Below, one piece after another: positions 37,585-61,360 of a stretch of 64,000 nt of DNA (position 1 is the first letter of the stretch; every line of letters begins with the position of its first letter). Position numbers and translations under genes: made by a program. The notes below the pieces were generated by a model. That model did not search any database. It saw nothing but the letters and a program-made list of their open reading frames with translations, and was not told where the DNA came from. The stretch spans positions 28,322,547 through 28,386,546 of the forward strand of contig OY987263.1 in NCBI GenBank assembly GCA_963920665.1, written 5' to 3'. Origin of the DNA: Straminergon stramineum. Lineage: Eukaryota > Streptophyta > Bryopsida > Hypnales > Calliergonaceae.

Positions 37585-37611
37585 TATGCCATATTTAACT
37601 ACTTTTGGACT
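37585..37611 (+). repeat. Left terminal inverted repeat of the 22.9-kb element
   Basis: The 27 bp are the exact reverse complement of 60424-60450 and of 60250-60276. Immediately inside is a small hairpin (TTTTGGACT ... AGTCCAAAA). Confidence 0.85.
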
Positions 37612-38738
37612 ATTGAAAGTCCAAAATTAAGAAAACGCAGAAATCTCCTGATGCATGGTGTGAGGCATTACAACGGGAGATTTCCAGATACTGTGAAGTT
37701 AATTTCTGTAAGTGTGTTGCACGGCTCCCAATAGGTCAATTGAATCACATGAATGTGCATCTTAGGAAATACATTAACTGTGAATGATGAAGTAAATAGG
37801 GCTCACATGGATTCATTTTAGGCAATACATCAGGAGATATCCAAATACACAGAAGTTTAGGTTTCCTTGAGGGTGGTGCCAGGCCCCATACGCACACGAA
37901 CATACATGTTAGGGAAGATTGAAACTCTGAATGATGAAGTAATTGCTACCACTTGGAATGGAGTTGGGGAGTAAGTTACCTAGAAATCTCCTGATGGAGT
38001 GCAAGCCTTGTAAGGCTAGCATGATCATTTTGTATACCAGAACATTGTGGTCTTATGCATCTTATGCCCTCCTAAAGTATTCCGGGCATGAACAATGAAT
38101 GTAAAAACTTGGCCTCAATTGATATTAACAAAGTCATTCGAAACATAAACATTTGAAAGCAGAGAGGTAGAAGATTCCAAAGAATGACAAGACCAAGTCA
38201 TATGAAATGTAATAGAACGAATGAAAATGAATATTGGAAATAGTAACTTACAATGCAAGAAAGAAGGAAATTGTCTTGCAACATCTTAATAATCGCTTAA
38301 GAGATCAAGTACAAGAAAATATTGAAAAGCAAAGCCAATGGAGTGCCAGTACCTGCTATGACTAAAAAATGGGATTTGGAGGTTGCACTGAAGGAATAAA
38401 AAGAACACATTCCGGTCTTCATGAATAAAGTGAAAGCATTCACAGCACAGAAGATTTCACAAGAACTAGTGGTCCCTAACTAAACCTTGAAAGACAAGAA
38501 ACCATATGTGGACACGCAGGCTCCTACTTTCGCGCCGGTCAGAAAGAAACATCGGGAGATCTCCTAATGGCCCTGCCAATACAACGTCGAGCAAAATGAA
38601 GCATCGGGAGATCAACTGATAGCTGTGCCACTATGTGGACAAGAAAAACAAAGCATTGGGAGATCTCCCGAAAGGCTTGCCACAGTTACGAATTGGGAGA
38701 TCTCCTAATAGCTGTAAAGATCAGCACACAATAGTCGA
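37612..38738. repeat. Left subterminal region with degenerate palindromes
   Basis: Degenerate forms of the element's palindrome occur near 37641, 37672, 37830 and 37985. Better copies occur near 38552, 38602, 38656 and 38694, just after the leftward gene's stop codon. Such clusters near transposon ends often serve as transposase binding sites; that role is inferred. Confidence 0.6.
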
Positions 38739-40829
38739 TCAAGGGTCCACCTCGTTTGCCCTATTCAAATTCGCAAGGGCAGCTTCTCTACTTTTCCTAG
38801 GAATGGTTCGTGATTTCGGGTTAACTTTCTTGGACCAAGTCGCGTATACTACAGAAGATGCATCCACCCAAGCGGGAGGTGTATTCTCAACAACCCACTT
38901 CCCGTACCAACAATTTTGGTATCTCAATTTCATCGAACTTTCAAAATTATCCGGTCTCCAATATTGGAGCAAGAACTTCTCGTTGTTGACATGGCCTTCC
39001 TCTCTGCAAACCTCGCACAGTGCTCTTCCTTGCTAGACAGCACAAATTGAGGGGTCTTCGGTTTGGAACAGAACCCACGAACTTGGACGAATATCAACCC
39101 AAGGATTGAAGCTTTCCCTTGGCGCCTCATTTGCGGGTCCGCAATAAGGTTCCAATTCCTCTTCCTCTGGAAGGATGTCGACAGGATTAACTGTCAGCTC
39201 CTGGGAAGATGATTTTTGCACCCTCCAATTGTACTTTGGCCAGAAGCCTTCAACCAATTCCGTAGGACAGTCCGGAAGTGGCTCCTTCACCTCGCGCAAC
39301 ACACGCTTCCAATACTCGACATATGGAGAAAAGGCGGTTGCAAATCCCTTGCATTTGGTCATTCCATCTTTCCAGAAGTCAATGTACTTCTCCAGTCCTA
39401 ATAGAATCAAACCCTTGTTCAAGGTCGCTTTCCGTGCCGCTTCCACCGCCTTTTCTTGATTTCCGGATGCTGAGGGAACTTCGCTACCTCACATGGGCTT
39501 GAAAGGAATAGGTTTAGGGCAACCCGGAGGTAGCTTCGGCCGACCGCTTCGGTCTTTCTTCCACAAGCATCGCGAAGGTCCATCAGATGGTAGCCACTGT
39601 GAATCAACTGCTGACTTCTTATATTTCATGATAGGGACTCCATGACAATCCACATAGAATCGGAAGAGGTGCATTTCCTCTAAACCAATCAGTTTAGCAG
39701 TGCCGCTGCACAGGTAACCCTTGACAAACGACTTGAAATCCACCACCTCTTGGATGAATTCTGGCATAAATGATAGTTCTTGGGACTCCATGAAGGCTTT
39801 CATAAGGTCCGCGACGACAAATGTATTCTTGCTCTTCAAAGCCTTGGACAGGTGGCTAAAATATGCATCAATGTCCTCGTGAGTATGTCCTACTAGTAGA
39901 AAACCCACCTGAATTTCCTGGAATACTCCTCTTGCAGTAAGCAAGGACAAGAACGCCATGAGATACTGGTTCTTGTTATCTTTCGCGGAGTTGTCAAGTT
40001 GAAGATAGAGCTTCTTAGGAAGAGGGCAAGCTCCACGTCGAGCATCCTCTGGAATCAATTTCAAGGCGTCCATACACCTAGATTTCCCTCTAAGTAATGC
40101 CTCGAATAATGTATTCGCAGGCGGATAGGGGAATAGGTTGCCAATCTCCCGAATCGGGGGACCTTCAAGTCGACGAAACAGCTTAGCCAACGATGAGATA
40201 GTGAAGTTCGAGTCGCCTGGCTAGCACGCTAGTCCATAATGGGCATATGCACCGTCGGCATGACCATGAGCAACCATACCAGTTACACTCATAGGAAGCT
40301 GACCCAAACCTTGTGTGGCCTTTGTTGTCACCCACATTCTTGGAAGAGCCGTCTTCCTTGTATCCATTTTGTCGTGAATGATGCACAGTATCTCCTCAGG
40401 GTTCCTCTTAGATTCTTCACGCCATGTGGCATACAATCAACGGCAGGATGCTTGATGATTCAGATGCTCACCGCGTTGCTTCATGAACTCCACGAAGTCC
40501 AAGCTTCCTTCTGGTGATTTCAAAATGAATTGCTATAGTTCATCGCACTTCGTACACTTGGCAAAAGAGCTGCCTACAGGCTTAATGGAAACGTTATTGA
40601 AGTGCTCCTTTTTTATTCTACTAATTGTGGACTAGCTGACTATACGAAGGCCACACTCCACATTCAACTGCAAGTAGAAAACCCGGACTACACATCAGAT
40701 TCAGTCAGGGTATGGAATTCTAAAACACCGTAAACAACAATCACAATAGCAATAGTGTCGACAAATGATTTCGCAAAACGACAGTCAGAAGAATTTTGGA
40801 TAGGATAGAAATAAAATCAAGTCCATTGG

Positions 40830-41620
40830 GAGACACGTATCGGGAGATCTCCTGATGAGGTAGCAATGGAAAGAAGTCCATTCGGAGACATGTATCGGGA
40901 GATCTCCCGATGAGGTAGGAATGAAAACAAGTCCATTCTAAGACATTTATCGGGAGATCTCCCGATGAGGTAGCAATGGAAAGAAGTCCATTCTAAGACA
41001 TGTATCGGGAGATCTCCCGATGAGGTAGGAATCAAAAGAAGTCCATCGGGAAACATATATCGGGAGATCTCCCGATGAGGTAGCAATGGAAAGAAGTCCA
41101 TTCGGAGACATGTATCAGGAGATCTCCCAATGAGGTAGCAATGGAAAGAAGTCCATTCGGAGACATGTATTGGGAGATCTCCTGATGAGGTAGGAATGAA
41201 AACAAGTTCATTCTAAGACATTTATCGGGAGATCTCCCGATGAGGTAGGAATCAAAAGAGGTCCATTCTAAGACATTTATCGGGAGATCTCCCGATGAGG
41301 TAGGAATCAAAAGAGGTCCATTCTAAGACATTTATCGGGAGATCTCCCAATGAGGTAGGAATCAAAAGAGGTCCATTCTAAGACATGTATCGGGAGATCT
41401 CCCGATGAGGTAGGAATCAAAAGAGGTCCGTCGGGAAACATTTATCGGGAGATCTCCCGATGAGGTAGCAATGGAAAGAAGTCCATTCGGAGACATGTAT
41501 CGGGAGATCTCCCGATGAGGGAGGAATGAAAAGAAGTGCATAGGGAGACATATATCTAGAGATCTCCCGATGAGGTAGGAATGGAAAGAAGATGTGTATC
41601 AGGAGATCAACCGATAAGGG
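40830..41620. repeat. Tandem array of ~55-bp palindrome units in the transposase-like gene intron
   Basis: About 14 units of roughly 55 bp, each with ATCGGGAGATCTCCCGATGA followed by a conserved spacer (gtaggaatcaaaag.ggtccatt..agacat). The array lies inside the 1068-bp intron 40668-41735. The inter-palindrome sequence is also repeated, so the array grew by tandem duplication. Confidence 0.9.
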
Positions 41621-43149
41621 CGGACTAAACTGAAGTTTGTAAAGAGAAATGTATGGGAAGATGTCCCCAAGCACTGAACTCCGAAAGAAACACATCATAG
41701 TTCTATCCAATCATATAAAAGGTTCACCGGAATACCTCATTAGCATCAGCATGAACGCGCTTCCAGTTGTTTCCCGCAGGCAAGAACTTCAATGTGTCCA
41801 CTCTCCCATTCCCTATGGACCGCATTTGGTGCGGCATTTAGTCAGCAGTGTTGTCGATGATGGCTTTCATTGTACCAGTGACCTGCACTGTTCGAAGTCG
41901 AGGACGCTTGATCCCTTTGTTCCCGTGGGTTGAGGAAACCACACCTTGCTTGTACAAATCCATGTAATTGTGGTAGGTGGACTTCGGTACTCCATGAATA
42001 ATGTACCATGTAGTGGCACAAACTTCTGATCCTTCCAAAGTAATATATTTCCGCTTCCGCGTCCAATCCACACTATGCAATTGCCCGCCAACAGCGATTC
42101 CATAATCTCGACGCTCTTCAAAAGACTTCGAAAAATATCTCTGTTTGACCATCAATGATTTCGCTTGGGGAAAAAACTGGCAGCAATGATTGTCGTAGCA
42201 TTTCTCTGAACTAACCTTCCGAATTTCATCGTTGCTAGTTTTACGAGTGAACTGTGTCTCCGTATGAAAAAGGGAGGGTTGACGAACTATGAATCGATAC
42301 GGCGCCTTTTCTCTTCCACCCAGATAGGCAAGGGGATCATGTACATCAGGAAAGGCATGGAAGTGCTCCATCGTGTCCTTCAAACTTCGACCATTAGGGA
42401 ACCAACACTCTGAAATTGGCCAGCGAGCGTGGGTCATGATTACATCATGATCACCCACGAAAACGTCAAGGATGGTCACACCTACGTGCCCCTCACCAAG
42501 GGTAGTATTCTGAAAACTATCGTCCGGCCTCCAACAATTTATTCGTCCAGATGACAATAACACACCCACTGCATCATTCCGATGAACCTCCAGCCCAGTC
42601 CGTTGCTCTTGTCGAATAAATGGACTCGAATCGAAATGGGGATCTTCAGTACATTTAACAACGTCCGTGGCACTCCACAACACCATCTGGTTCAAGACAT
42701 CTGAGAGCGTTGTAAAACCCCTTTGGCAAGGTGTGACCCTAAAATATTGAGCTTCAACGATAAACGATGACGAGTGTATGAGAACAAATATCCACGGCTC
42801 GAATGGAATAGGAACTCCAAGCCACTCACCCTGAGGTCTTGCCTCCACTACAGACCCTACTCCGACTTCACCAAATCCTCAATGATAAAGCTTAACCACG
42901 TCCCCTACATTCAATGGTGAAGTCCAGGCGCAAGACTCCTGTGACTCGCCCTCGTCAGCACCATCGCCAATAAATGGCGTAATTGCATAATCCATTGCCT
43001 TTGAGACCGAATCCATCGACTCTTCCCCACTGTCCATAGAAACCATATCTCGCATAGGTTTTGAATCTCTATATCTGCAAAATAAAGGACCCGACGTTGA
43101 GGTTAGAAAAAGTCAATTCTAAATGACACTATCCACAACAAGTTAGGGT

Positions 43150-44060
43150 CAGTCACTACAAATTCATTGGGAGATCTCCCGATCGAAGGACTGTGCAGCA
43201 GAAAATATTTGCAGTCGAAGAAAGTAGTAATATAATGAATTACAAATATTCGATCCCACCATTGCAGTAAAGTCATCCAAACCCTAAAACAATCTCACAA
43301 TATAAATGCCCAAGAGAACCCGAGAGTGGTAGATGTCTGGACAGACCTCTCCCGTCTCTGATTAACAGAAGACCATCAAGAGATCTCCCGATGGGGTCGA
43401 CAACCACAGCCCGTAACATTTCATCGAGAGATCTCCCGATGAACAGAACAGCCACAGTGTATAACACTTCATCGGGAGATCTCCTGATGCACACAGCCCG
43501 AAAGTATGAAACAATTCAATGGCAGATCTCAACATTCAAATTGAAAATGAGGTCCCCATTCCTAGGTGGAATGATTCCTGAAAGAAGTCATCGGGAGATC
43601 TCCCGATGATAGCCAATCGGACTGCTTCTACACTCAAATCATAAAGCGATCTCTTCATGATCTTCTCGTATATGGATATCTCCCAATGATATTGGAAAAT
43701 TTCCGTACACTTCTTTCATCGGGATATCTCCCGTTGAGAATGCTGAATTAACATTTCCCGAGATCATCTAGAGATCTCGCGATGGTAATGCAGAAATTTA
43801 GATCATTGAAATCAACGGGAGATCTCCCGTTGATCTTGCCGAATCTCCGTTTTCAGAAGTCATCGGGAGATCTCCCAATGTTCTCCTTGCGGATTGTCCA
43901 AGGATGTCGTCCGATTGACCTAGAAGAACTCCACTGGTCATCCTCGAAATACAGTTCCAAGATTATGGCACTGTAGAGACATCGGGAGATCTCCCGATAA
44001 TAAAGTAATTCACTAAAAGTCCGCCAAGCAATCAACAGGAGATCTCCCGATGGCGCGAAT
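43150..44060. repeat. Palindrome cluster in first intron of the transposase-like gene
   Basis: About 12 copies lie in the intron 43075-44127, near 43170, 43378, 43424, 43472, 43590, 43720, 43770, 43816, 43861, 43981 and 44036, with weaker ones near 43523 and 43655. Unlike the 55-bp array, the sequences between them are unrelated. Variants at positions flanking the core often change on both arms (for example CAACGGGAGATCTCCCGTTG), keeping the inverted symmetry. Confidence 0.85.
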
Positions 44061-44210
44061 CCAAGACATCCGTACAATACCGAATGTGATTCGTAGGGTC
44101 GTTTATACGCGTAATATACGACTATACGAACTGTCTGCTTCGTGAAGACTACAGTACTTCCTCCTTGCTCTCGACGTCGGGTTTGTACTCTGTGCTACAG
44201 ACACTTGCAT

Positions 44211-45150
44211 TGAAGTTTTACTTTTGAACAAAAATCATTCCACTTCAATGATACGGAGTTCGAAATCTATGATCTCGCCATCCTGCATAGGCCACAAACT
44301 AACGACGTGGAATCGGTGTACTTCGTGATTGTTCACAAATGCGCGCATTCACTCTCATCTGTGAAGACTGACTTCTAGGTGAATCAATCACAACTCCATC
44401 GGCACCCCCTAGACATGCATAGGTTCTACAGTCCGACGAAGACGACATTGACATTCATCACATCCTCCTACTCACTCAGTCTGCGATTCCACTGCATTGT
44501 CACTCCAGGCATCATCAGTCCATTAGTGCATTGTCGTCATTTTGGAATTCTGCAACTCAGTGAACCACTACAAAAAAAAGAGAATGATACCTACAGTGAG
44601 GGGCTGCGAAAATCAATCCACTAAACCTCTTGCGCCAACGCACTTGAACTTACAATTTCCTACTCTTCTCACCTTCATTCCACTACTTCGTTCACGTCTG
44701 CGAAAGAGAGAAAGACTGCGGTCGTTGGGGGTCATCACAAACCTCAAATCTGGAATTCGTACTTCCCGCCTAAATTTCATAAGAGCACTATGTTCCTGCA
44801 TTTCGGATTCTCTGAGCACTCTTAATGGTCGTGCGCGCCTGTGTGCAGGCCGAATCTGAAGATGCAGTCTTCTTTGAGATTGTTGACTGTAGTCTTGGAG
44901 GGCATGCCGGCCTGCCAGCTTAAATGTTGCGGATGAGTTCGTCAGACTTCGATAACGGCTCAAATATACAAAGGCGGACAATGTCCGTCTGGGTCTTGAA
45001 GTCGAATCTTCCATTGATTCTTCGAGGGGCCTGCTTTCAATGTGCTGCTTCTGGTTCGTTAGGTCTCCCTCTACGACTGAATACTCTTGGGTTCGGCATG
45101 TACCTATTGTATGTTATTAACTTTCCTCCACTATTACTGCATGCGATCTA
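44211..45150 (-). promoter_or_regulatory. Upstream region of the leftward gene
   Basis: Composition is richer in GC than the AT-rich centre to its right, as at the 5' ends of the host genes. It probably contains the promoter and leader of the leftward transposase-like gene. An Arg-rich open frame here was not accepted as a gene. No specific promoter element was identified. Confidence 0.35.
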
Positions 45151-45307
45151 GCAGAAGAGTTCAAGCCATTTAAAACACATCCACACACGTGTATTTTATT
45201 GTTATGAAAAAGTCATACTATAAATCATTAAGTTGCCCGAAGTACTAGTCCCTTCATGCACGTTTTCAATTATTTCACCCCAATTACTTAAAGTTCCATG
45301 ACTTACT

Positions 45308-45342
45308 TTAGGGTTTAGGGTTTAGGGTTTAGGGTTTAGGGT
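45308..45342 (+). repeat. Interstitial telomere-type repeat (TTTAGGG)5
   Basis: Five perfect TTTAGGG units are followed by a TTCAGGG variant. Shorter runs occur at about 45413-45427 and 47941-47957. TTTAGGG is the standard plant telomere unit. The runs are short and inside the element, so this is not a chromosome end. Confidence 0.9.
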
Positions 45343-46849
45343 TCAGGGAAAAAGACAAAGAAGGAAACAAAAACCAGAATAGAGTCCAGGGTTTCAAGGT
45401 GTAAGATTTCAAGGTTTAGGGTTTAGGCATACATTCATTTTGGAATACCTTCCATAATTATGTGGTTCTAAATTTCGGGTCATGATTTCATTCCTTGGGA
45501 ATCATTTTCTTTAATCTATATTGCTAAAGATCTCTCTTTGCTTGTGACCCTTCTGGTGGATATATTCTTTTGTCTAAGAGTACATTTGGAAGGTTCTAGT
45601 GCGGTTTTATAGATTGGAATGATGGACTTCAGTTTCTGAAATCTTTCTTAGACGGTAGAGTATGTTGAATGTTTTGAAATGCATTTTATATTATAATTTG
45701 ATGTTGTCATTTTTCACATTCTCTTGTTTTTTATTGATTGCATTTTTATAGAGTAAATAATTGTATGTTGAGACCAAATATACCATACCCTATCTATGGG
45801 TGTGCAATCCTTCTTTGGAATTGAGCGAGGGATGTTTGCTTGTTCTTTTTAATCTACAATGGGAGAACTTTGGGAAAGCTCGGTCTAGGTTTTTCCTTCT
45901 AATGCTTATCCCAGTGTGTTTTTTTAAAAATTTGTAGACCCGAAAGTTGAATGTAAATAAATGACCAATCATATAATTAGTATTTCATATGATATATGCT
46001 TAGGTTTAGGGTAAAAAAATGATGACTTCTCCGATTTTGCTTAATTAGACACATGTGCATTCAATGTCTAATACATAATCATTAAAGCCTAATATACTTC
46101 AAGAATTTGTCTATGTGATATTTAAAATCAAAGCATATGAATTGTATATTCCAACAAGAAATTAGGGTTTATGAATGGGATAAGTATTTAGGATGAATTT
46201 GGCATATAACATACCAGAAAACTATATTGAAACTTCTCTAATGTAAACTAAGTAATATACCAAGGCTAGTTCAAAATGTGCCCCCCAAAATATTATAAGT
46301 ACCATAACAATGTTGTTAATCACCACCAGTCCTCTTCTGTTGATTTTGAAGAAATATGTAAGTAACATGTCCTTCAATGAGTTCTACAAGTTCAACCTCC
46401 TTTCAAATAGTTTATTCTTGCAAGTGTATGCAAAATACAAAAGTAAGTCACTCTTCAACAAAGTGTGTTTTGTGTTCTAATTTAACCCTACTACCAACAA
46501 TGCTAGCATGCAAGGTTAGAGCCATGCACTTGTGAGCTTTGAGTGTGGAACTTGTGAGCCTAAAGCCCCCAAAACTTTTTGGGGGAAATTTTTGCACACC
46601 AATTTCCTTTGTTAACTTCTTTTTCTAATAGTAGAAAAGAAGTTTCTAATTATAGTGACTATTGTGAACTATGACCGTATCACCTATAACCATGAATTGT
46701 TCTAGTCCTTTTAATTGTCTTGAGATTTTTTCATTGGTACAGGAAAAGAACTTCAAACTGTGTTGACAAGTTTGAGCACTTAGTTCAATAAGTAGAACAA
46801 GAAAAAAAAGCCAAACGTTGTAAGTACACTAGACAAATGTCATTAAAAT

Positions 46850-47065
46850 GGATGAAGGAAAAAAAATGGGGAATCAAAGGAAAAAAATGGGGGAAAAAAT
46901 GGGGTCCAAAAGAAAAAAAAGTGGGGAAAGAAAAAATATGGGGTCCGAAAGGAAAAAAATGGGGAAAGAAAAAGAAAGTGGGGAAAGAAAAAGAAAGTGG
47001 GGAAAGAAAAAAAAAGGAAATGGAAGAATTGGGGAAAGAAAATAAAGTGGGGAAACTGTGAAAAA
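46850..47065 (+). repeat. Purine-rich low-complexity tract
   Basis: Irregular repeats of GGGGAAAGAAAAAG/TGGGG-type units make an almost pure G/A strand of about 215 bases. Long open frames on both strands here reflect composition only. Confidence 0.85.
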
Positions 47066-48750
47066 AAATGGGAAAGATAAGAAATGATTGGGGATTGAAA
47101 CCCCAAAAACGAGAAAGGAAAACCATATTATTGAAAGTACAATTAAAAGAAAATAATCCTAAGCACATACGAAAATGAAGGAGCACATAATGCAATTATT
47201 TTAAAAGAGTAACTAATATGCAAAAGTTTAGAAAATGGTAAAACATAGGGGTAGAAAATGAGTGGAAAAAGAATAACATATTCATAATTATATGCGTTAC
47301 TCAAATAAAGATTAGGGTGGTAGATTTGAACAAGGTACAATTCATGTAAGTAACTAAATTCTAATTTATTCCCACATTTCATATTTTCTTATTCCACCAG
47401 GCATCTACATTTTTTCCCGATGTTTATTTTTTTTGCCACCCACTACATAATTTTCCACATACTTCTTTATGTTGAATTGTCAATCTATATTTGTTTCCCC
47501 CCCTATTGTTTATCCCTTGACCCATATTAGTTTTACCCCTTGTTCCACCATTTCTTTCAACTATAACTTTATGTAGTTTTAGGGCTACCCTTCTTCATTA
47601 CTTCTCTTCAAATTTAGAATGATTTTGGGTAGTACTTCTTTTGTTATTTTGTTTCTTTAGAGTTTAGGGTCATGTGAAGTTGGTACATCTTGTAAAAGTA
47701 CATTTTCATTGTTCATATGGCTTCCCCATAGAAGAAGTGATTTGGAAATTGATGAAACAATCATATTAGTTATTTAGTGATGTTGTTTTTGTATAAGCGA
47801 TTGTAATGTGTCATTTACAATTAGAATGAATAGTATTAGCTAGGTATGACAATCCTTAATTCATCGCAACAATTTTAATTTTTGTATGTTAGTAAATTTT
47901 TAGTAATAAGTACAATATATTTGGTGATGATGAATTCCAAGGGTTTAGGGTTTAGGGTCATCATTTTGGGCCTTCATCATACAATATGATGTCGAAATCG
48001 CATCACAAAATAATTAATTTCAAATATGTAGTACACATATCTTTTTGATTTAGGATAATTAATATTTGATTTACGGACCTCATGTACTTCGGGAATGATG
48101 TTTTGTATCATTCTTTGAGGTCCTAAAATGTAATAGCATTTCATGTAGAAGTTTAAGGTACATACATGGGTTTATTTTTATAGGTTATTATTTGTCCAAG
48201 AACTCAATCATCTTTAACAAAGTATATGTAGATCACTCTAGTGGTCTTATTTTGAAATTCGTGAGAGTCACTTGATTATTTAATGACTTGTATATAAAGT
48301 CTTTGTGAGGGTTAATTACTAGGAGATGAGCTTTGAAAATGGAAAAAAATGATGTACACAAAAATTATGGGAAAATGAGAGAAAGGCTTTCGAGCATAGA
48401 AATGTAATGCTTGTGTACATTTTTGAATTTCAATGCAAACAATCACTATAATTTGGGCCACAATGGGATAACCTTGCTCCCACTTGTTGCACAAGTGAGT
48501 ACTTCATCTTATGAGTACTGCAATTTTTGTGATCATTTTACGTGGTAGTGTCTAGTAATTTGAAACCCTTAGCCATTATTCCTCCATAACTAAGGAAATG
48601 ATGAAGGAGTTTGAAATTCTAAGTGAATTAATCCCCCCTCCAAGTTGTAAGCAAGGGATAACTCACTAATGCCCCCCTTACTAATTGCAAGGGAGTGGTA
48701 ACAAATTAATCCCCCCCCCACTCATTCTTACCATGGGTGAAGTCATCATG

Positions 48751-50006: not shown

Positions 50007-50317
50007 ATGTCAACATCCTCACCAGCACCCAAAAACCCAGATGATTGGACCAACCCGTAAGTTCTTCCCTCCGTCGCTATATTTGCATTTGTAATCTGTA
50101 TTGGCAAGGAAATGGCTCTAGGAATTCCTTCTTAGTATTATCCATCAGTTGGACATACGCATTGAAACGAAGCTCATCGATTAGGTCGGAGTTGGTTTAT
50201 TGAGGATTAGGCACCAAAGTGCACGCCCGCATGCCATTTCCGATGCCCCAGAATACCGAACCATGAGTCCCGAAGTAATGCAGTTTAATTTGAAATAGTC
50301 AAATTTCCCCTATAACC

Positions 50318-51335
50318 GTTCATTGGGAGAACTCCCGATGAAAGTCGACTAAGAAAATGCAGTACATTGACACTGCGAGTTCACTTCTTGGAGAAATAAC
50401 CCTGAACCGTCATAATGAGACTGGTATTCGAACAGCTGCCGACAATTATTTCGCAAGTAGACCATCGGGAGATCTCCCGATAAAAACAAAAGCAAAAGGA
50501 AGTGATGAAACTCAGTGAACATGAATATTATCGGGAGATCTCCCGATAGATTATAGACGATTTTACCTCACGAGATAAAAACTAAGCAGAGAAACAAGTG
50601 AATAAACTTTTTAAAGGAGAAACTGAAGAAACCATCGGGAGATCTCCCGATGGAAAACACTCCAACTAGAGTGACTCCTTCCTCAGCACATAGGCATCCT
50701 AAAATTGCTAAACGAATTTAGGGTCATCATTACTCATCTGGCCAAGACCGGTACATCGGGAGATCTCCCGATGCCAGCTGTAATTAATTAAGAAGGCCGC
50801 TTCATCAGGAGATCTCCTGATGCCAGGATTGATTAATCAAGGATGTGATTGCAACGGGAGATCTCCCGATGCCAGCTTTGAATGTTGAGGGATGTCAATG
50901 TGACGGGAGATCTCCCGATGCTTAGTATGGAAAAACAAGGATGTGATGGCATCGGGAGATCTCCCGATACCAGCTTTGAATTATGACGGATGAGAATGCA
51001 ACGGGAGATCTCCCGATGCCAGCTTTGAATTATGAATGAGGTGAATGCAACGGGAGATCTCCCGATGCGAGCTTTGATTTATGAAGGATATGATTGAAAC
51101 GGGAGATCTCCCGATGTCAGGTTTGAATTATGAAGGATATGAATGCAACGGGAGATCTCCCGATGCCAAATTCGACTTATCTCGGATTTGAATGCAAGGG
51201 CATATCTTCCAGGATCTTCTTTTAATTCGATAGCCTAGAGCGATTTTCTGTAGAATAAATTCCCGAATAGAATTACCACTAGTCAAGTACGAGGAAAATA
51301 TAGAGGATCATCAAGAGATCTCCCGATGTAGAGAA
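50318..51335. repeat. Palindrome array in the first intron of the rightward gene
   Basis: About 14 copies lie in the intron 50057-51402. The copies from about 50853 to 51149 are spaced about 49 bp apart with a shared spacer (gatgccagctttgaatta..aaggat.tgaatgcaa). The earlier ones (50321, 50463, 50530, 50634, 50755, 50804) are irregularly spaced with unrelated flanks. This mirrors the leftward gene, where an intron also holds both kinds. Confidence 0.9.
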
Positions 51336-52782
51336 GGTGTTCAATTTACACTCGATTCGTCGTGATCCAGTCAATCTAACATATTTCTATCTTCTTGCGC
51401 AGATTGAATGTAAAAAAGGAACTCCCTGCGAGTCTTTCACCTATAAAACTGTTCAAGTTTTGCGATAGCTAGGTGCATTCGTATCGGTATCATGGCGAGA
51501 ACTTCCCAGGAGCAGTGTTCCGATGCGACTGGAAAGTCTCAGCTTGGGGCCTTGAGTGGATTGAGGAGGAAGATGGAACAGTCATCATATGCCTGAAGCT
51601 TACCTTCAACGATAAGGGTCACATGACAAAGGGGTTAGCTGTCTTAGAGCTACAGGGTCTAGATAACGCCACAGTCCTCGTCATTGTCGAAGAAATGGTT
51701 CCCAAGACTGATGAGCGAAGGAAATATGGTTTGATCCTAGACTACGCCACTATGGATCTTGACATGTGTGAGAGTATTACACGGAAGGGGTTTTTAGAGA
51801 AACCAGACGGAACCCACTTCTGGACTCCTCAGGAGATGAAGAATGAGTGGGACATTCTGGACGAGACCAGACAACAACCGAAGCCAAGTGCTGCACCCAC
51901 ACCTCCAAAGCCATCTCCTAGCAAGAAGGGAAAGAAGCGGAAAGCAATTGCCGGAGGACCAGGAGATGAAGTGGTGGAGGAGCCAGTGGGCAAGGGCAAG
52001 GGAAAAAAAAAGCCAAAGGCTGTCAAGCTCACATTGCATTGCATCGTGAACATGACAGACGCTAAGGTCGGGAAGCTCGAGCCCGATGAGATTAAAGAAA
52101 TCAACAAGCTATACAACCAGGTATTCAGGCCAATGTACAAATGGGAGAAGAAGCCACTCGCCAATGCAAAAGGTGAACTACTGCGAGTGCACTATAAGAA
52201 CCTTCACAAGGCTCCTCCTGGCGTACTGGTGTACAGAGGTATTGAGCCCCAACGCCTCAAGGGAATCAAGAATCGGATTCTCGTTGATGCCGACTATCAT
52301 TCTGAGAACCGATACATTACTATCCTACCTCTAAAGAGAGGACCATACGGGATAGACAATGTCGTGGAATTCTGGGATTTGTGTCCGAAGAAGGAAAGCC
52401 TGACCGCCAAATCCCATTACTACATTATTGGCGGTCAGCACACAGTGCAAGCGCACCAGGAGTTGGTGGAGTCAAGACATATCTCGGAAGCTGATAAGCA
52501 GTTGGCCTCGACGTTCAACATAATTGTGATCTGGGAACCGTACTCCACCAAGAAGAATGATATTATGCATCTCTCGAAGGCGCTGAACCAGAATATTGCC
52601 GGGGAACAAAAGGAGCAGAGTTTCTCTAAGCAACTTGCGCATGCTCGAATAAAGTGGAAAGATATGGGCAGCCCGATGCTAGCGTATGGAGGTCGAACGC
52701 ACTCCGCCGAGTACAGTGTAAGCGTCCCTGACTAAATGTCGAATCATTGTCCCTTCTTTTTGTGTTGCCTATATGCACAGCT

Positions 52783-53015
52783 ATCGGGAGATCTCCCGAT
52801 GTCTTGCCACCTGAAGATCTTTGGATGCCTCTAGATTTCCAGTCGTCTTTGATGAAGTTGGGATTCCTCAGTTTTGTCGCACTACAGGCTTGCACTGCAC
52901 GATCAACGGGAGATCTCCCGATAGATCTTGGACCATGCCTTACCTCATGCTATCAAGATATGGAGCGCTGGTTCCTCCTGGACCCAAGAAGTGAACCAAC
53001 GGGAGATCTCCCGAT
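52783..53015. repeat. Three palindromes in the second intron of the rightward gene
   Basis: Copies near 52783, 52904 and 52999 lie in the proposed intron 52718-53041. Another single copy at 54852 lies in the intron 54833-54939. The exons between 51403 and 54832 contain none. Confidence 0.85.
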
Positions 53016-55429
53016 GCTGTTCACATTTACGTACTCTGTAGGTTTTCGAAGACGATGATTTTTAATAGTTACATTTCCCATGTGCAAGAGTTCTATCCGG
53101 TGATGTCTACAATATTCACGGGATTCAAGAATCCTGACCCGGACTTGAGAATTCCTCTTCTCTTCATGGAGAATGACGACGATGTGCAACGGTGGATCAA
53201 AATTGATAGGGATTTCCTCATGGGAAAGCTTCTTGATGGGAATGGTCCAAAATCGAAAAGCAGAAGAAAACCACTGAGCTATAGCGACTACAAGCCCTTG
53301 TATGGACTCCGCAACAAGGACATAAACTATTTGGCAGAGCAGGTTGAGAATGCAATGATATGTATGAAGAAGACAACGCTCAATGTGGACGATTTTGGGC
53401 AGCCATTGATGCCTCTCATTGTTGTAGCAAATAGAGAGAAGAAGGTGAGGGCCATGAAGAACGAGCTCATGTGCCATTACAGGCAGCATCCTCTTCCGAG
53501 CAAGAAGCCGGACTACATTCCATACAGTGCCAAAGAATGAGATCAGTTTGCGGCGGAGAAGAAAATAACCCGGGAGCAGGTTGAGTGGTGGGTGGATAAG
53601 AGCATGGCAACGGAACTTGGGAAGGTATAGTTGGAGGAGCGAATGAGGGCACTGAACAAAACATGTGACCCCGACGAGTGCCCAGATTCAGTGAAAAGGA
53701 TGTGGGAGTCCTTCATGAACGACCATGAAGAAGAAACAAACGAGGCCACCGTGTCTCAGGATTTCGTAGATGAGTACCTCTGCAAAGTCATGGACGAGAA
53801 GAGCTAGGTCATTACGAAGATTCTGACGGACGCCTTCGTGAAAGCATGGCGTGGTGAAGGGAAAACCCACATGTATTTCTGGTTTCTCTTTGAGGTCACA
53901 TCTGCTGGAGCACGTGCAAAATACCTCGAGCACCACAAGTTGAAGCGCTTGTTTGATGCCCTCGAGTACAGGGACGCCAGTCGACAAATTGTGAGAGCAC
54001 GATCCCCTACGGTTCTTATTACGGATGTCGCTGGATTTCACGACGTCCTCACACATTTGAAGAAGCGTCGAGACGAGTGTAAGGCTCGTATCTGGGACTG
54101 GCATGTAATAAATTACATTCCGGATGTGGGGGATGGCTTCCCTCGTCCCATTGCCGGTGCGAATTACAATGTGTTTCTTGTCTTCCTCTTCGCCTACGAC
54201 CAAATCCAGGGCTCAACGAGTAGCTTCAACAGCTTCTTCCCGGGCACACAAGAAATTCCAGCCGTGTATTTGTCTCGGGATATGGAGGAAGTCAGTACTT
54301 TGTACAGGCGCCCTATTATGCCGTGGTTCTCTATCTCGGCGGCGCATGAAATTTTTTCTAGCCATATCTCTGAGAGTATGGTTATCGTGAATGTGAACGG
54401 TGGTCCAGAGTTCACGTTTCTTGGACTGGTAAGTCGCCATTCGTATTCTTCTTGCGTGGGAGTGTATTTTTTAGAGTCTTGGTGGCGCACTAACTTGTGC
54501 TTGTTCAAATCTGACAAGCTACTTTGAATAAGGTACTCGAAGTCGTTGATGACTCCGAGACACAGTCCAAAGCACAGTTGGTCGCAACGCAAATTTGGGA
54601 TGAGTTGCATATGGAAGGAGATGAGGAAATGGAAGAGGATGAAGAGGATCCCGCTCCGGAGCAGTCAATAGGTTATGGAGATGCAACAGATGAAGGTCCT
54701 CAAGAACCTCCACCACCACAGAAAAAAGACGAGGTTGTGGATGTTTCAAATGAAGACAACAAAAGTAGCTCTCACAGTTCAGAGGACACAGAGTCTGAAT
54801 GCTCACCCTCGACCACACCTGTCGTCCAAAAGGTCAGTTGCCGGAGGGAACCATCGGGAGATCTCCCAATGTTGGTTCGTCTTTTTCCATTTTTTAGCGC
54901 CCTTACTTATGAAGATCTAATGAATTTTTGTCCTTCCAGGAGAAGTCAGTAGAACCATCGCGACCGAGGCGAGACTTGCAACCGTCGTCTACACCAAGTG
55001 CCTCACAGAAGAGGCCTGGAAAGTGGGCTGCTGAGGAGAAGTTGGGTACGGTGAAGGCGAGAAAGATGTCGGACAAAAATCCGCGTGAGAGGAAGTCAAG
55101 TCACCAGGTGGAGTTCAGGACGAAGCGACGGCTGGATATCCAACTAAGTGACTCCGATAGTGCCGACCATGTACCCTCTTCTCTAGTGCCACGTCGAAAA
55201 AAGCCCAGCCCAGACATCTCATCCCCTCCGTTGACTAGGGCTATAGATGCCGTTGCACTGACTCCGGAATCCAGCAAAGCGACGGCTATTCTTCTTACCT
55301 ATTGAGGGGAATGTGCTATTGTTGCAATTCCGGAGCCTACGAGTGAGCAAGTGGTGCAGGTGCTTACCGCACCGACAGACACCGGCACGCACTATGGATG
55401 TGTTGAACTCTCGCAAGAGGAGACGCGCG

Positions 55430-57230
55430 ACAATGCTACAGGAGATCTCCCGATGCATACTGACCGAGCCGGTACTTCCGGTTGTGAAGGGGGAGAGAAA
55501 ATTCTGATGCAGGGGGATGCATCGGGAGATCTCCCGATGGACCCTCATCGAGAGGTTACTTGTAATCGAGAAGGGAGAGAGGAGGCGCAGATGGGGATGG
55601 GAGCATCGGGAGATCTCCGGATGGCTAATGACCTAGAAGGCATTGGCAATCTTCAGATGACAGAGAAGGCACAGGCGGTGGGGGTTGGAGCTCCAGATTT
55701 CCAAGAGGTTATTGGCGATCGGGAAGAAAGGGTGGAGGCACAGGTGCGAGTCGGTGCATCAGGAGATCTCCAGATGGGTAATGTCCCAGAAGACATTCGC
55801 GATGTGGAGGGGACAGAGAAGGCGCAGGCAGGGGGAGTTGCAGCGGGAGATCTCCCGATGCGTAAGGACCCATACGACATTCACGATCTGGAGGGGTGTC
55901 ACGACCCTCATCACAAGGTGTGCCCGTGCCACCTTGGTGAGCAAGGGGGACATTGGGGGTGACTCCCCAAGCCTTGCAAGAGATGAGGTGAGGGGGACTA
56001 GGAGTCCCGAGCGATCAGAGCGATGTAGCGCTCTGATCTGGACGAATTTGGGGGCGTGTAATACATGCTTGGAAAGGTCTTGAGAAGACGCTTCCAGCCG
56101 TCCAAAGAACGCGTGATTTGGACTTGCGAGTCAAAAGTTATGGGCGTTCAAAGTTGGGGGTGTCCCGGTCGCGCCGAGAGTGTCCCGAATCTTTGGAGGG
56201 CGATAACTTTGCGAGTACTTGTCCGAATGGAGCAAGTGAGCAGTCCATCGGCATTTATACATTGCGTAGATGTCGAAAATGGGGTCGCATGTGCGATTTG
56301 GATCCCGGACCGCAAAGTTATGCCGGGTGGAAGTTTGGGAGTCCCAAACTAGTGCGAATCGGGAGAAACGGGGTGGTCCTCCAAAACCAAAGGGTGTTTG
56401 GGAGTCCCCCTTGACATACAAGGGGGGGGGGGGTTGCCGAATCCCGCAGAGAATACTATGAGGAGGGGTGGTCTCCCTCCTCACTCCCGAATGGTGCCAT
56501 GGTGAGCCTGAGTGGCCCCGGGTGGTGAGGCTAGTATTGGAGCCTCACCACCACTTGTGTGTTACCATGGAGTGCTTGTGCACTCCTTAATACCGGTTGG
56601 GTGGTGTCCCACTCCACACTAGGCCATGGTGTGAGTCCCATTTGGTGAGTCCCAATTAGTGAGTCCTGAAATGAGTTGGGTTAGGCCTAGTGGGGAGTTG
56701 GGTCCCATTCAAGGGCGGTTAGCACCGGTGGGAGTAGTGCCTCACCGAGTGCTTGGACATTAATGGAAGTTCCGCCCCATGTCATCAAATGACATGCCCG
56801 GTGTCTTGTGGGAGTTAAGTATTGCAAGGAAAGGATTGGGAGTCAAAGAGGAATGGGGAACCCCGTGACTTGAGTTGGAACCTAACATTGTGGGTGCGTG
56901 GCATGTGTAGTGTTAGGAGAGCGTGAACCTTAGTGGCACTAAAGTGTTAAGTGTTTGAAAAGTGAGCTTAAGGTGGTAAGTGTCACTAAGGAGCGCGACA
57001 AGGGGACTGAGAAGGCGCAGGCGAGGGGAGTTGCAGCGGGAGATCTCCCCATGCATAAGGACCCATACGACATTCACGATCTGGAGGGGACAGAGAAGGC
57101 GCACGCGGGGGGGGGGGGGAGGTGCAGCGAGAGATCTCCCGATGTGTACAGTCCAGGATTTGAGTCTTCGTCCCTCAGTGACGTCGACAATTCAATTGGA
57201 TGGTGGTGCATCAGGAGATCTCCCGTTGTC
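55430..57230 (+). repeat. 84-bp coding tandem repeat built on the palindrome
   Basis: Palindromes at about 55437, 55521, 55605, 55759 and 55843, then 57037, 57127 and 57211, keep an 84-bp period once the 1109 bp added by the LTR insertion are subtracted. A degenerate unit sits near 55690. Each unit reads about 28 residues, with A/SGDLPM from the palindrome followed by acidic and Gln/Ala-rich sequence (EKAQ..GV). The G run near 57105-57118 breaks the period and frame. Confidence 0.8.
55892..57005. mobile_element. Solo LTR inserted in the coding repeat
   Basis: The 1104-bp sequence 55897-57000 begins TGTCACGACC and ends GCGCGACA, with TG...CA ends as in LTR retrotransposons. Identical AGGGG flanks at 55892-55896 and 57001-57005 are a 5-bp target duplication. 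Removing the insert restores the 84-bp repeat reading across the site. No internal retrotransposon genes or second LTR are present, so this is a solo LTR left by recombination. It is markedly GC-richer than the intergenic DNA. Insertion strand cannot be told from the symmetric ends. Confidence 0.9.
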
Positions 57231-57691
57231 TCAGGTCGAAGGTGGAACATCTGATGCCAATGTCGCTACCAACATTCTAGAGGATGCTCTAGTAGACTTG
57301 AGGCAAATGAGTCCGGAGGCTGGCACAGTGAAGGTGAATCCATTCATAGCTGTTCCGCAAGCTGGACTGACTTACGCAAAGAGACTCTCTGTAAGGAATA
57401 GGTTTAAGGATCTTATTGATTTGCCAACTCACCATGCAAGTGTTACCTGCGATCCCACGAGTAAATCTTCTTGTGATATTCAGGCCGCGTGGGAGGCCAC
57501 CAATTTTTTGTATCAAAGCATTGTTGATATCGCTTGTGACCGTATATCGCAGGCACCAGAGGAGGAGGTCTTTGAATCTGGGGCTACTTCTCCTTCCAAG
57601 GTTTACGAAGCAGAAGTGAATCGGATTGGAGAGGACGACACCAAAGGTGCTTGAGGTGACATCCTACGTATCTTCATGGATTTGATTTCAA

Positions 57692-58401
57692 TTGAATGCC
57701 GATGTGGCTGGACTTATGTCTAACTTCTCTCTGGTATTCTGTATTGCAAATTGTCCTGGTCCTTCGACGGCGGTTCCGGGGATACCCCAAAAAGTAACTC
57801 ACCATAACTATACAGTGATTCTGGACTTGAATGGAGTTATCCTTCACAGGTCGTATTTCCGTAATAAACTTCATGTTGAACGTCGGTCGGGTGTCACGAC
57901 CTCCTTAATTGGTTGCGTGGAAAAGCGCAAGTTGCATTCTGGAGTAGTGTAATTCCCCGAAACATGAACAACTTGTTAGACATTGTCCTTGCAGATGCTT
58001 CCTTCGGTCATGGAGATGTAATTTGTTTAGATCAAGAGGCTTGCACGAAGACCAAGTACAGGGCCCCAACTACACCACATAAGCCAATCTTTTTAAAGGA
58101 TCTTACGATTTTTGCGCGGGTTGCTGGTTTGTCGACACTAGAGAACATTCTGCTAATTGACGACAGTCCAGTAAAGAACGTCATGAATGATCAACACAAT
58201 GGTGTTTTCCCTGAGTCCTTCTGCGGTGATTCCAATGACAACTACCTTCGGATGCAGTTGATCCTTTGGCTTGATGGTCTTTTTAGGTCAAATGAGAAGG
58301 TGCTAGTGTATGTGAAGAATAACCCGCTTTTTGGCGGACAACAGGGAGTCGACCTATTATCCAATGAGGGCTTTGCAATCATTAGCGGGATAGTGCATTG
58401 A
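57692..58401 (+). pseudogene. NIF/FCP1-type HAD phosphatase-like domain, frameshifted
   Basis: The segment reads YTVILDLNGVILH, then VAFWSSVIPRNMNNLL, then ENILLIDDSPVKNVMN and a C-terminal NYLRMQLILWLDGLF. This is the order of motifs in the CTD-phosphatase-like (NIF, FCP1) HAD family. The catalytic DxDG(T/V) motif reads DLNGV: the nucleophile Asp is kept, but the second, acid/base Asp is Asn. The frame changes near 57900-57915, consistent with loss of one base, so the copy is broken as well as possibly catalytically altered. It follows the ParB-like gene by under 100 bp on the same strand and may be its last exon or a separate cargo gene. Stop TGA at 58399-58401. Confidence 0.65.
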
Positions 58402-60101
58402 GCCCCGTTTTTTTGAGGCTTCATCGGGAGATCTCCCATTACTGTAAATTCGGATGTAAAACATTAACACTGTACATAGGCCTCAGTACATATTGATAAT
58501 CAGATTGTAAATAATTGCACTTTTACTCCGACTGTAACAAAGAGATGACTGTTAATGAGATTGTAAATAATTGCATTTTCCGTCCACTGTGAATTGTATA
58601 TTACTTGTTAAGAAATGTAAAGTGATTGCACTTTTATTCTCATTGTGAATTGCATTCTTTTTTTCCTACTCAGTTTTATGTTTTATTTGTATTCCATCTA
58701 GAGATTTTTTTCTGTGCAAGTCACTCCTTAGTTGTTCTTCACTTTTCTTGTTCAAAGATACTTAAATGACAGTTAGTTTCCAGAATGTACTTGTAATTCG
58801 TAGTCTACCTTTACCACATTCCAATTGGAAAATAGTGAGTTCTCTCTATTTTCAGCCACTACTGGAAATGGTTCTCCGGAGTTGTCTATTCTTACTTCAT
58901 CGGGAGATCTCCCGTTGTTAGATGGTGCTGACCAACGCGATTGTCCACTGTCATTTCATCAGGAGATCTCCCGGTGCTAATAGGTTCTTCGTGAACTGAG
59001 TATTCTTCATGAGCTTCATCGAGAGATCTCCCGTTGTTTGGAGGTTTTCTTTATCTGATGAGTTTGGTCGACGTAGAAGGCGGTTCTCGTTGTTCTTATA
59101 GGTGCTTTATGCGTGGAAGGCGGCATTACGGATCTTCCTCAGAGAATTATCGTACCTGCTGGTTTTTGAGGCTTTGTTAAACAATTGGTTGAAGATACTC
59201 ACTATGGGTTGTATTCCTCAATGAATGTTCTTGCCGTGGCTGCGCTTTTGTAGCGTCTTCTCCCATGGAGTACTTTGAAGAGTTTCCTCTATATTGCTGG
59301 TGCGGACAACCCTAAAAAGAATGACCCCTATCCAAACCGTGCTGAATTATTGAAGCTTATCTTAGGTAGCCCTAGAGAGCGCAGCATTCTCTGGAATCAA
59401 ACTATAGTTCTACTTGAGTTAGATCCTCTTAAGTGGCCACATGCTCATGTGGTAGGACCCTCCATACTTGCGAGGGATGATCTTCTTCCTTTGAGATGGG
59501 AGCGTCTGTGCTATGGAGTAAAGGAGCTAATTGCTAGGACTTAAAACAGAGTACAGGTAGAAAGTCCTTCAGTCATGGTGATTATGCAGTGAGTGTAGTT
59601 TATGCATTCAGATAAGCCATAGGGCCACTTGTCATTTCATTTTCAATCATGCACCCACTGTCTTTTCATCTTGAATCAGGGATTCTATAGGTCAGGGCTT
59701 CAGTTCTTTTTAAAGGCAACTTCTGTTATTTTCTATATCAATATGAATAAATTGTGGTGAATCCACCTTACCTTTCAGTTACTTTCTAGTTTCATTCATC
59801 CGCACTAGAAGTTTGTATTTGCATTTGCCTTGTCATTTTCTATGTTCTCTTTTACTGTAGGAGGTTGAGTGCAGGGATCATATTGGGAGATTTCTGGTTC
59901 CTAATTATGCGTGGAAATACTAACAGGGGAAATGAGACCTAATAGTTCCAATTGAATAATAACCGTTTTTATTGGTTTCATGCCACACTTACAGTCCTTG
60001 TATCTTGGATTTGCACTACATCGAGAAATCTCCCGATGATTCGTCTTAATTACTATGTACAATTCAATGTTCTAAGGTTGAATAATTGAATTGTCTTAGT
60101 T
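58402..60101. repeat. Right-hand region with dispersed palindromes
   Basis: Palindromes occur near 58423 (just after the HAD-like stop), 58898, 58958, 59018 and, degenerate, 59880 and 60018. The three at 58898-59018 are 60 bp apart. The rest is AT-rich, with TGTAAAT-type 3' UTR sequence around 58450-58620. Confidence 0.7.
59275..59544 (+). other. Unrecognised open frame, 89 codons
   Basis: The frame lacks an ATG and encodes a mixed, protein-like composition ending at TAA 59542-59544 (motifs PYPNRAELLKLILGSPRER and LPLRWERLCYGVKEL). It may be a terminal exon of the rightward transcription unit or a fragment of a captured gene. I do not recognise the family. Confidence 0.3.
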
Positions 60102-60450
60102 ATAATGTTTTTTGTCCCCTTCTTGTGTGTGAACATGGTCTACTTCACTCTTTTCTTCCCCCTTTCATAGGCATTGGGGTCTCCTAATCCATAACAACGG
60201 GAGGTCTCCTGATGGCTTCTCCCATCACATAGTCCAAAAGTCCTCCTAAAGTCCAAAAGTAGTTAAATATGGCATATAATGTTTTTTGTCCCCTTTTTGT
60301 GTATGAACATGGTCTACTTCATTCTTTTCTTCCCACTTTCATAGGCATTGGGGGCTCCTAAACCATGAGAATGGGAGGTCTCCGGATGACTTCTCCCATG
60401 ATATAGTCCAAAATTTCTCCTAAAGTCCAAAAGTAGTTAAATATGGCATA
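60102..60450. repeat. Tandem duplication (~174 bp) of the element's right end
   Basis: Copies at 60102-60276 and 60276-60450 share sequence from 'tataatgttttttgtcccc' through 'ttcataggcattggggtctcctaa', a degenerate palindrome (gggaggtctcc), and the 27-bp TIR (60250-60276 and 60424-60450). The duplication includes the terminus itself. Confidence 0.85.
60424..60450 (-). repeat. Right terminal inverted repeat of the 22.9-kb element
   Basis: The 27 bp are the exact reverse complement of 37585-37611. An identical copy at 60250-60276 could also serve as an end, giving a shorter alternative element. Confidence 0.85.
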
Positions 60451-61360
60451 CATCAACACACTGATAACAAAAATCTTTAAAACCATCCAAGAGATTTGCC
60501 TAGCTTAATCCACACTCTTAAACAACACTCACTCTACATTACATGGAGAATACCTACTACAAAAGTAATGGATTAACAAATCACAAGAGACATTATTCTT
60601 AGAAATTCCATTTACATCATTAACCCAAACCCTGATGGTACTCAACCCTATTACATTACACACTTAAAAAACTACACAAATACAGTAATACACAAATTCC
60701 ATTCCCACCACCACAATTACTTCACAAACAATGGCTAAAAGAACTAAGAACTTTAGCTAAAACTACCAAAGCAAAGCAAATCATACAAAGACAAATGTCA
60801 TGAATATTAGAAAAGTTATTACCAAATACCACCACATATCCTAGACCCGACCTAAATAAATATACAAATCCATCTTCAAAAAATATGAATCACCACCTCT
60901 TGATTGCCTCTGAGATTGACAAAATAACCTACTCATGAATCCAACATTGCCGACAAAATAAATATACAACAATCCATATATAATTGTGTAATAGTCCCTA
61001 GACATGAACAACACTACTAGATAAAGGAATGTGAATTCATATAGATTTTGCATAGTTTTATTGATAAAGAGGGTTGGTTAGGACACCATGTAGGATGAAT
61101 GTCCTCATGAATATGCCACATTGGTTGAATCAACTTCCATGTTACTAGAGACTAACCGCCACATGAGAATCAATGAAGCTAATGAGGTTTGAACCCAAGA
61201 TCTCATGAAATCAACAATGAGGCTTAACTATCAACCCATTATTATTTCTAATGTATAATTTGTCTTCATAATTGCAAACATAGAGGTTTGGAATTAACCT
61301 CTTCGTGAAGGACTTTGGCAAGAAAGAAAATTTGAACTTTAATTTCATTAATCAGAATGG

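What the first reader, a model, noticed from the sequence alone, without database searches (positions are those of the whole stretch)
37585..60450. A 22.9-kb TIR element with two divergent multi-exon genes, apparently undescribed
Exact 27-bp inverted termini enclose a DUF7869-type gene, a ParB-like/HAD-like transcription unit and a confined palindrome family. I know of no named plant DNA transposon with this gene set. The gene order (divergent genes around an AT-rich centre) and the size are unusual for plant DNA transposons.
Basis: partly seen in the sequence, partly recalled or inferred. Interest (0 to 1): 0.95.

Follow-up and report, generated by a model that had tools for sequence, protein, structure and literature searches.

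The report
Giant moss transposon with self-tagging palindromes
A 21-kb jumping gene of a moss-like plant carries its cutting enzyme, a second fast-changing gene, and dozens of copies of a short palindrome whose spelling switches symmetrically between two related families, which suggests the element marks its own DNA for one of its own proteins.

Summary
The window lies in an unnamed 326-Mb assembly (moss-like by inference) where this is a repeated transposon. All 28 left ends read (of 40 scored) start at the same base after different flanks; four of five copies with both ends have an exact 4-bp target duplication (window: ACAT). The element proper is 37586-60449 with 26-bp TIRs. A 1,104-bp solo-LTR-like insert and a 174-bp terminal duplication inflate it; four other complete copies are 21.1-23.1 kb. 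The left gene (DUF7869) models as an RNase H-like transposase. The right gene is fast-evolving and nearly undescribed; its 'ParB-like' label could not be confirmed. A second family keeps the divergent pair (transposase ~75%, right gene ~49% identical) and has its own dyad: CATCtGGAGATCTCCaGATG instead of CATCgGGAGATCTCCcGATG, changed in both halves at 31 of 31 sites. Half-sites vary nearly independently, so duplex DNA is probably what is read. 'Undescribed gene set' is only partly right: a 21.5-kb Sola1 element of Ectocarpus has a ParB-like/methyltransferase gene opposite its transposase. Best reading: a giant Sola1-like element whose accessory protein binds these dyads, probably for expression or anti-silencing. 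Binding is not shown.

The parts
37582..37585 (.). left target-site duplication ACAT
   Evidence: identical 4 bp outside both ends
37586..37611 (+). left terminal inverted repeat, 26 bp (ATGCCATATTTAACTACTTTTGGACT)
   Evidence: 28 of 28 left ends read begin here (27 ATGCC, 1 ATACC)
37586..60449 (.). whole element (22,864 bp here, with a 1,104-bp insert and a 174-bp duplicated end; 21,112-23,128 bp in the four other complete copies)
38742..40688 (-). gene A, large 3' exon: DUF7869 transposase; six in-frame stops in this copy
   Evidence: RNase H-like model
40689..41716 (-). gene A intron holding the 55-bp tandem array, one dyad per unit
   Evidence: family D1 (14 registers), (15 sites); splice sites read by eye
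41717..43112 (-). gene A upstream exon(s), N-terminal part; aligns to Physcomitrium DUF7869 protein P0024
   Evidence: 5' limit approximate
43168..44050 (.). dyad cluster upstream of gene A (12 sites)
45100..48700 (.). AT-rich centre between the divergent genes, no dyads; also in the other fetched copies
50324..51325 (.). dyad cluster upstream of gene B (14 sites incl. 49-bp array)
52719..53084 (+). gene B intron with three dyads
   Evidence: donor by eye, near the end of homology
53085..54416 (+). gene B second long exon, unknown domain, three in-frame stops here
   Evidence: limits by eye
54940..57651 (+). gene B repeat exon: 84-bp coding repeats with in-frame dyads (SGDLPM peptide), interrupted by the insert
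55897..57000 (.). solo-LTR-like insert with 5-bp duplication AGGGG; not part of the element
   Evidence: by eye; absent here from copies 1, 2, 3, 5, 7
57780..58401 (+). NIF/HAD-like (FCP1-type) coding segment; the window copy has one base fewer than five other copies
59254..59541 (+). further open segment, unknown
   Evidence: no stop in 4 of 5 copies aligned (window included)
60424..60449 (-). right terminal inverted repeat, 26 bp; extra copy at 60250-60275 from the 174-bp duplication
60450..60453 (.). right target-site duplication ACAT

Best explanation
A giant cut-and-paste TIR transposon, probably of the Sola1 group. Gene A encodes an RNase H-like (DDE/D) transposase that cuts at the 26-bp TIRs and inserts with 4-bp duplications. 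Gene B encodes a fast-evolving accessory protein that, as a dimer or clamp, binds the element's own 20-bp dyads (CATCGGGAGATCTCCCGATG). These are spread over introns, upstream regions, subterminal DNA and one coding repeat, so one protein can cover the element. Binding most likely keeps the element expressed, against DNA-methylation silencing, and limits the effect to its own family, because a related family uses a dyad altered symmetrically at one position per half-site. Shown: mobility (many copies, common ends, 4-bp duplications), conserved divergent gene pair, confinement of dyads, near-independent half-sites, symmetric switch between families. Inferred: which protein binds, that binding happens, and its effect on silencing.
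Against: No binding, expression or methylation data. No DNA-binding domain identified in gene B: fold model poor (pLDDT 45), no Pfam match for the window protein, DUF6551 in 2 of 18 relatives at best E 0.029, no methyltransferase found. Dyads are not better conserved than their flanks between copies (6.1% against 4.6% mismatches at 35 non-array sites). One of ten dyad base pairs, at the CpG, does show excess complementarity (58 against 46.3), not explained. Of eight upstream stretches of other gene-B relatives, two had no dyad (L061, L068) and one had mixed bases (L064). Nine of the 50 family-2 dyads listed lie away from loci with both genes.
Confidence: 0.5

Rival explanations
1. The dyads are binding sites of the transposase (gene A), as the subterminal repeats of En/Spm are for TnpA (recalled), and serve to pair the ends for excision.
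For: 15 of 68 dyads lie near the ends (8 left of the DUF7869 exon, 7 right of the HAD segment); the read-through exon begins with a helix-turn-helix-like stretch (by eye).
Against: Most dyads are internal (introns, upstream regions, coding repeat) and the 26-bp TIR has none. Gene A is ~75% identical between families whose dyads differ, while gene B is ~49%.
Confidence: 0.2
2. The dyads act as hairpins in RNA or single-stranded DNA (small-RNA source, splicing or replication signal).
For: The sites are perfect or near-perfect palindromes; the pair at the CpG shows more complementary cases than independence predicts (58 against 46.3).
Against: The other nine of ten dyad pairs lie within 3.2 of the independent expectation among 77 loosely defined sites, for instance 52 against 52.0 and 47 against 47.6. 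A hairpin role predicts compensatory change.
Confidence: 0.08
3. The dyads are a passive satellite-like repeat spread by slippage and gene conversion, without function.
For: Tandem arrays of 55 and 49 bp; no excess conservation between copies.
Against: Many sites are dispersed with unrelated flanks and keep only the 20-bp dyad; coding segments other than the repeat exon have none of 68; the family switch is symmetric in both halves at 31 of 31 sites.
Confidence: 0.17
4. Gene B is a self-modifying system: a ParB-like protein that loads at dyads and marks the element through a methyltransferase-like domain, as suggested for Ectocarpus Sola1-1.
For: Similar size and an accessory gene opposite the transposase.
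Against: No methyltransferase domain recognised; ParB not confirmed.
Confidence: 0.15

Closest known systems
Sola1-1_Ec32, Ectocarpus (PMC12477816, passages read)
   Same: 21.5-kb DNA transposon; accessory gene on the strand opposite to the transposase; large accessory protein described as ParB-like
   Different: No methyltransferase domain found here; NIF/HAD-like segment instead; no dyad family mentioned in the passages read. No sequence comparison was possible.
Sola1 superfamily (Bao et al. 2009, not held, recalled; Physcomitrella Sola1 in Table 1 of PMC9033089, passage read)
   Same: TIR transposon in a moss-like host, 4-bp target duplications (a Sola feature by recall), DDE/D-type transposase
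   Different: About four times the 5,445-bp mean of bivalve Sola1 (PMC10294476, passage); extra gene and dyads
VANDAL21/VANC anti-silencing system of Arabidopsis (PMC5735166, passages read)
   Same: Element-specific short motif mainly in non-coding parts, partly in tandem arrays in introns and upstream; motif differs between related families; accessory protein with variable tandem peptide motifs
   Different: Motif here is a 20-bp dyad, not a nine-base oriented word; genes not shown to be related; no binding or methylation data
En/Spm TnpA subterminal repeats (recalled)
   Same: Many copies of a short motif bound by an element-encoded protein
   Different: There the motifs are subterminal; here they run through the element except most coding segments and the centre
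bacterial ParB-parS (recalled)
   Same: Palindromic sites, possible ParB-like protein
   Different: Homology not confirmed here; eukaryotic transposon; dozens of sites

Membership tests
TIR (class II) DNA transposon | inverted termini at the boundaries of many copies with unrelated flanks | tested here: met
   28 of 28 left ends read; inverted right end in all 5 copies where one was found, of 8 examined
TIR (class II) DNA transposon | target-site duplications | tested here: met
   exact 4 bp in 4 of 5 two-ended copies; 3 of 4 bp in the fifth
TIR (class II) DNA transposon | RNase H-like DDE/D transposase | tested here: met
Sola1 superfamily | 4-bp target duplication (recalled) | tested here: met
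Sola1 superfamily | sequence homology to described Sola1 transposases | not testable with these tools
   no reference Sola1 sequence held; the Bao 2009 paper is not held
Sola1-type element with ParB-like/methyltransferase accessory gene | accessory gene on the strand opposite to the transposase | tested here: met
   60 of 70 gene-A rows paired divergently with gene B
Sola1-type element with ParB-like/methyltransferase accessory gene | ParB-like domain | tested here: inconclusive
Sola1-type element with ParB-like/methyltransferase accessory gene | DNA methyltransferase domain | tested here: inconclusive
   no Pfam match in the segments scanned; gene model incomplete
VANDAL (MULE) | 9-bp target duplications (recalled) | tested here: not met
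   4 bp
VANDAL (MULE) | MULE transposase and VANC protein (recalled) | tested here: inconclusive
   no such Pfam match in the segments scanned

The most novel reading that the evidence does not exclude
A plant transposon encodes a parS/ParB-like partition-style clamp: the gene-B protein loads at dozens of self-specific dyads, spreads over the 21-kb element and excludes silencing machinery. Families diverge by symmetric one-base switches of the dyad matched by changes in the protein, giving each family its own address.
Probability: 0.2. Interest if true: 0.92.

Novelty: new variant of a known kind. Interest (0 to 1): 0.72.

Why it matters
Accessory genes of giant algal transposons are described, with binding to their own element only suggested (PMC12477816 passage). 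Here a putative cis-partner is visible, abundant, confined to the element and switched symmetrically between two families in one genome. The question 'what does the accessory protein recognise, and does recognition define the family?' can be tested with two proteins and two 20-bp oligonucleotides. If binding protects the element from silencing, it would be a second, independent invention of VANC-like self-recognition in a different transposon group.

Tried and rejected
Rejected: chance inverted repeat; the AT-rich centre as a foreign insert (present in the other fetched copies); selection on a hairpin (with one pair unexplained); excess conservation of dyads between copies (tested, not found); an alternative genetic code for the in-frame stops (numbers of stops differ from copy to copy, and one copy has none in this exon). 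Sub-threshold matches taken as chance: PF12255 on the second long exon of gene B (14.1 and 12.3 bits, cut-off 25), PF12355, a calcium-binding protein at E 0.036, a phage hub protein at E 0.15.

Led nowhere: fold of the gene-B exon; PDB sequence searches; viral contigs (57 and 179 stretches matched a pattern, none confirmed); long annotated relatives of gene B (7,986 candidates scored, none at E 0.001); paper search for DUF7869 (0 papers). Bao 2009 and the Bostrychia genome paper are not held and are known here only by recall or citation.

Not answered ('busy'): the right-end search, the TIR pattern search and the genome-wide count of the family-1 dyad. Busy at first and answered later: left end (5, 7, 15, 19; answered 31), gene B (66, 72, 75; answered 79), family-2 dyad (89, 94; answered 99), gene A (100, 103, 106, 110, 113, 114, 118; answered 123). 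Ends and duplications of family 2 were not determined, so that family 2 is itself a TIR element rests on its gene pair and dyads only.
Full report
1. Is it there? The inverted termini are exact: 37585-37611 against 60424-60450, with a second right copy at 60250-60276. The dyad CGGGAGATCTCCCG (up to two mismatches) occurs 59 times, all between 37674 and 60211, against 0.09 expected in shuffles. With a 20-bp score there are 68 sites inside the element and none in the other 41,136 bases of the window.

2. Is it mobile? The window lies at G000:C1:28322547-28386546 of an unnamed 326-Mb assembly in 59 contigs. A moss-like host is my inference from the nearest named gene-A relatives, Physcomitrium and Ceratodon, and a chlorophyll a/b-binding gene. 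A 401-base probe of the left end scored 40 places (of 222 first-look candidates): besides the window itself, 36 matches start at query positions 82-88 (the terminus is 87) and three at 66-78. In all 28 left ends that I read (L001-L028), the sequence starts ATGCCATATTTAAC (27) or ATACCATATTTAAC (1), after different flanks. I fetched 20-30 kb from seven copies. Copies 1, 2, 3 and 5 match the window element from end to end, copy 7 to the end of its 20-kb stretch, and copies 4 and 6 only from the left end to about window 53.7 and 52.5 kb within 30 kb. Long matching pieces are mostly 92-97% identical and include the AT-rich centre. Five of the eight copies (window included) had both ends in hand: four have exact 4-bp duplications (ACAT in the window, TTCT, ATGC, AATG), and the fifth has CTAT/CTGT. 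Lengths of the four other complete copies are 23,128, 21,436, 21,275 and 21,112 bp.

3. What inflates the window copy. Bases 55897-57000 begin TGTCACGACC, end GCGACA and are flanked by AGGGG on both sides (sequence). They are absent at this place from the five fetched copies that cover it (1, 2, 3, 5, 7); the same sequence lies elsewhere inside copies 1 and 6. I read it as a solo LTR. The 174-bp duplication of the right end is not seen in the other four copies with a right end.

5. Gene B (plus strand). The exon 51473-52718 has 17 relatives in a 5.8-billion-protein database, none with a source's name. A search restricted to long proteins found none (986 candidates scored). Its ParB label could not be confirmed: model pLDDT 45, no informative fold match, no Pfam hit, and DUF6551 in 2 of 18 relatives at best E 0.029. 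The next exon (53085-54416) has no informative match. A repeat exon encodes 28-residue units whose dyads are in frame (peptide SGDLPM). In six aligned copies its frame has 0-2 stops in the first part and 0-1 in the second, against 2-10 and 9-14 in the other two frames; in the first part one other frame is nearly as open in two copies, so coding is probable, not proven. A NIF/HAD-like segment follows (6.4e-10); the window has one base fewer there than the five other copies compared. Average dN/dS between copies is 0.41-0.61 over five coding segments in 6-8 copies, as expected when source copies were under selection and inserted copies decay.

6. Two families in one genome. Gene B gave 103 matches (100 of 247 candidates scored) and gene A 70 (68 of 837 candidates scored); both are lower bounds. 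Of the 70 gene-A rows, 60 have a divergently oriented gene-B match within 45 kb, 57 of them at 9.4-19.6 kb. Three gene-A loci appear as two rows each, so this is 57 of 67 loci. Ten gene-A rows and 24 of the 81 gene-B rows used had no partner. Among pairs with gene A at 84% or more (38 rows, one of them a piece of a family-2 copy) median identities are 93% (A) and 92% (B). In the other 22 they are 75% (A) and 49% (B). Gene B thus changes much faster than the transposase.

7. The dyad switch. In two family-2 loci (L059, L060; 9 kb together) I found 31 dyads with T at 31 of 31 and A at 31 of 31 of the position where the window has G at 52 of 68 and C at 53 of 68. The dyad is CATCTGGAGATCTCCAGATG. 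The change G to T is a transversion, so it is not the CpG decay seen within the window family. The exact family-2 dyad occurs 170 times in the genome and its reversed control 0 times. Of the 50 sites listed there, 41 lie at four loci with both genes (C2:12.18-12.21 Mb, C3:35.60-35.61, C4:2.64-2.66, C4:10.34-10.36; gene positions) and 9 elsewhere. In 1,050-base stretches upstream of eight other gene-B relatives, four (L062, L063, L066, L067) have the T/A form, with one G among their 46 half-sites; L065 (74% identical) has mainly G/C (12 of 18 half-sites); L064 is mixed; L061 and L068 have none. No exact family-2 dyad occurs in the seven family-1 stretches. The genome-wide count of the family-1 dyad did not complete.

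8. What reads the dyad? Among 77 loosely defined sites the two halves vary as independence predicts at nine of the ten base pairs of the dyad; the pair at the CpG shows an excess of complementary cases (58 against 46.3). Uneven age of sites and degenerate matches in the set may cause it, but I did not test that. On balance this argues against selection on a hairpin and for duplex recognition of two half-sites. Sixty of 68 sites are in introns, upstream or downstream DNA, eight in the repeat exon, none in about 7.1 kb of other coding segments and none in the AT-rich centre (exon limits partly by eye). Copies do not conserve the dyads more than their flanks (6.1% against 4.6% mismatches, 35 non-array sites), as expected for silenced, decaying copies but no support for current function. 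Gene B is the better candidate reader, because it diverges with the dyad whereas the transposase changes less. That is inference.

9. Known relatives. [quoted passage not shown] Table 1 of PMC9033089 lists Sola with Physcomitrella. Size, strand arrangement and 4-bp duplication (the last a Sola feature by recall) fit; sequence membership could not be tested. Passages of PMC5735166 give the closest functional analogue: VANC21 binds a nine-base motif that lies mainly in non-coding parts of VANDAL21, partly in tandem arrays in introns and upstream regions; motifs differ between families, and VANC proteins carry variable tandem peptide motifs. In the listings of my searches for this gene set and dyad (open-access library, top rows only) the Ectocarpus paper was the only one that I judged relevant.

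10. Verdict. A real, repeated giant transposon; its gene arrangement has a published relative in brown algae, so it is a variant of a known kind. The dyad family with a symmetric switch between families appears new within the searches above and makes a specific mechanism testable.

Noticed in passing
window 55897-57000: Solo-LTR-like insert with 5-bp duplication AGGGG inside the repeat exon of gene B; the same sequence also lies inside two other copies of the element at other places.
   Followed up: partly
window 60101-60448: 174-bp tandem duplication that includes the right terminus, giving two right TIRs 174 bp apart; not seen in the other four copies with a right end.
   Followed up: yes
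window 5101-5880 (+): 259-codon ORF of a chlorophyll a/b-binding protein (PF00504, E 2.6e-42): a photosynthetic host.
   Followed up: no
window 11000-30000: Long stretch of about 40% GC with T excess on the + strand and only one ORF of 170 codons or more (29067-29681, no Pfam match), unlike the 30% GC around it.
   Followed up: no
window 30887-31201 and 61356-61673; 33045-33174 and 62576-62705: Two repeat pairs (about 73-78% alike, one direct, one inverted) on either side of the element.
   Followed up: no
window 45310-45354 and 46845-47080: Telomere-like AGGGTTT units and a GGGG/AAAA-rich tract in the AT-rich centre.
   Followed up: no
family-1 copies against the window: The AT-rich centre differs least between copies (1.9% against 4.2% overall); CpG positions differ most (9.6%), as expected from methylation decay.
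   Followed up: partly
L044-L046 (copy 6): Copy 6 stops matching in gene B; the rest of that exon is found about 14 kb further on (C9:18774659-18774934), so a large insert probably interrupts it.
   Followed up: no
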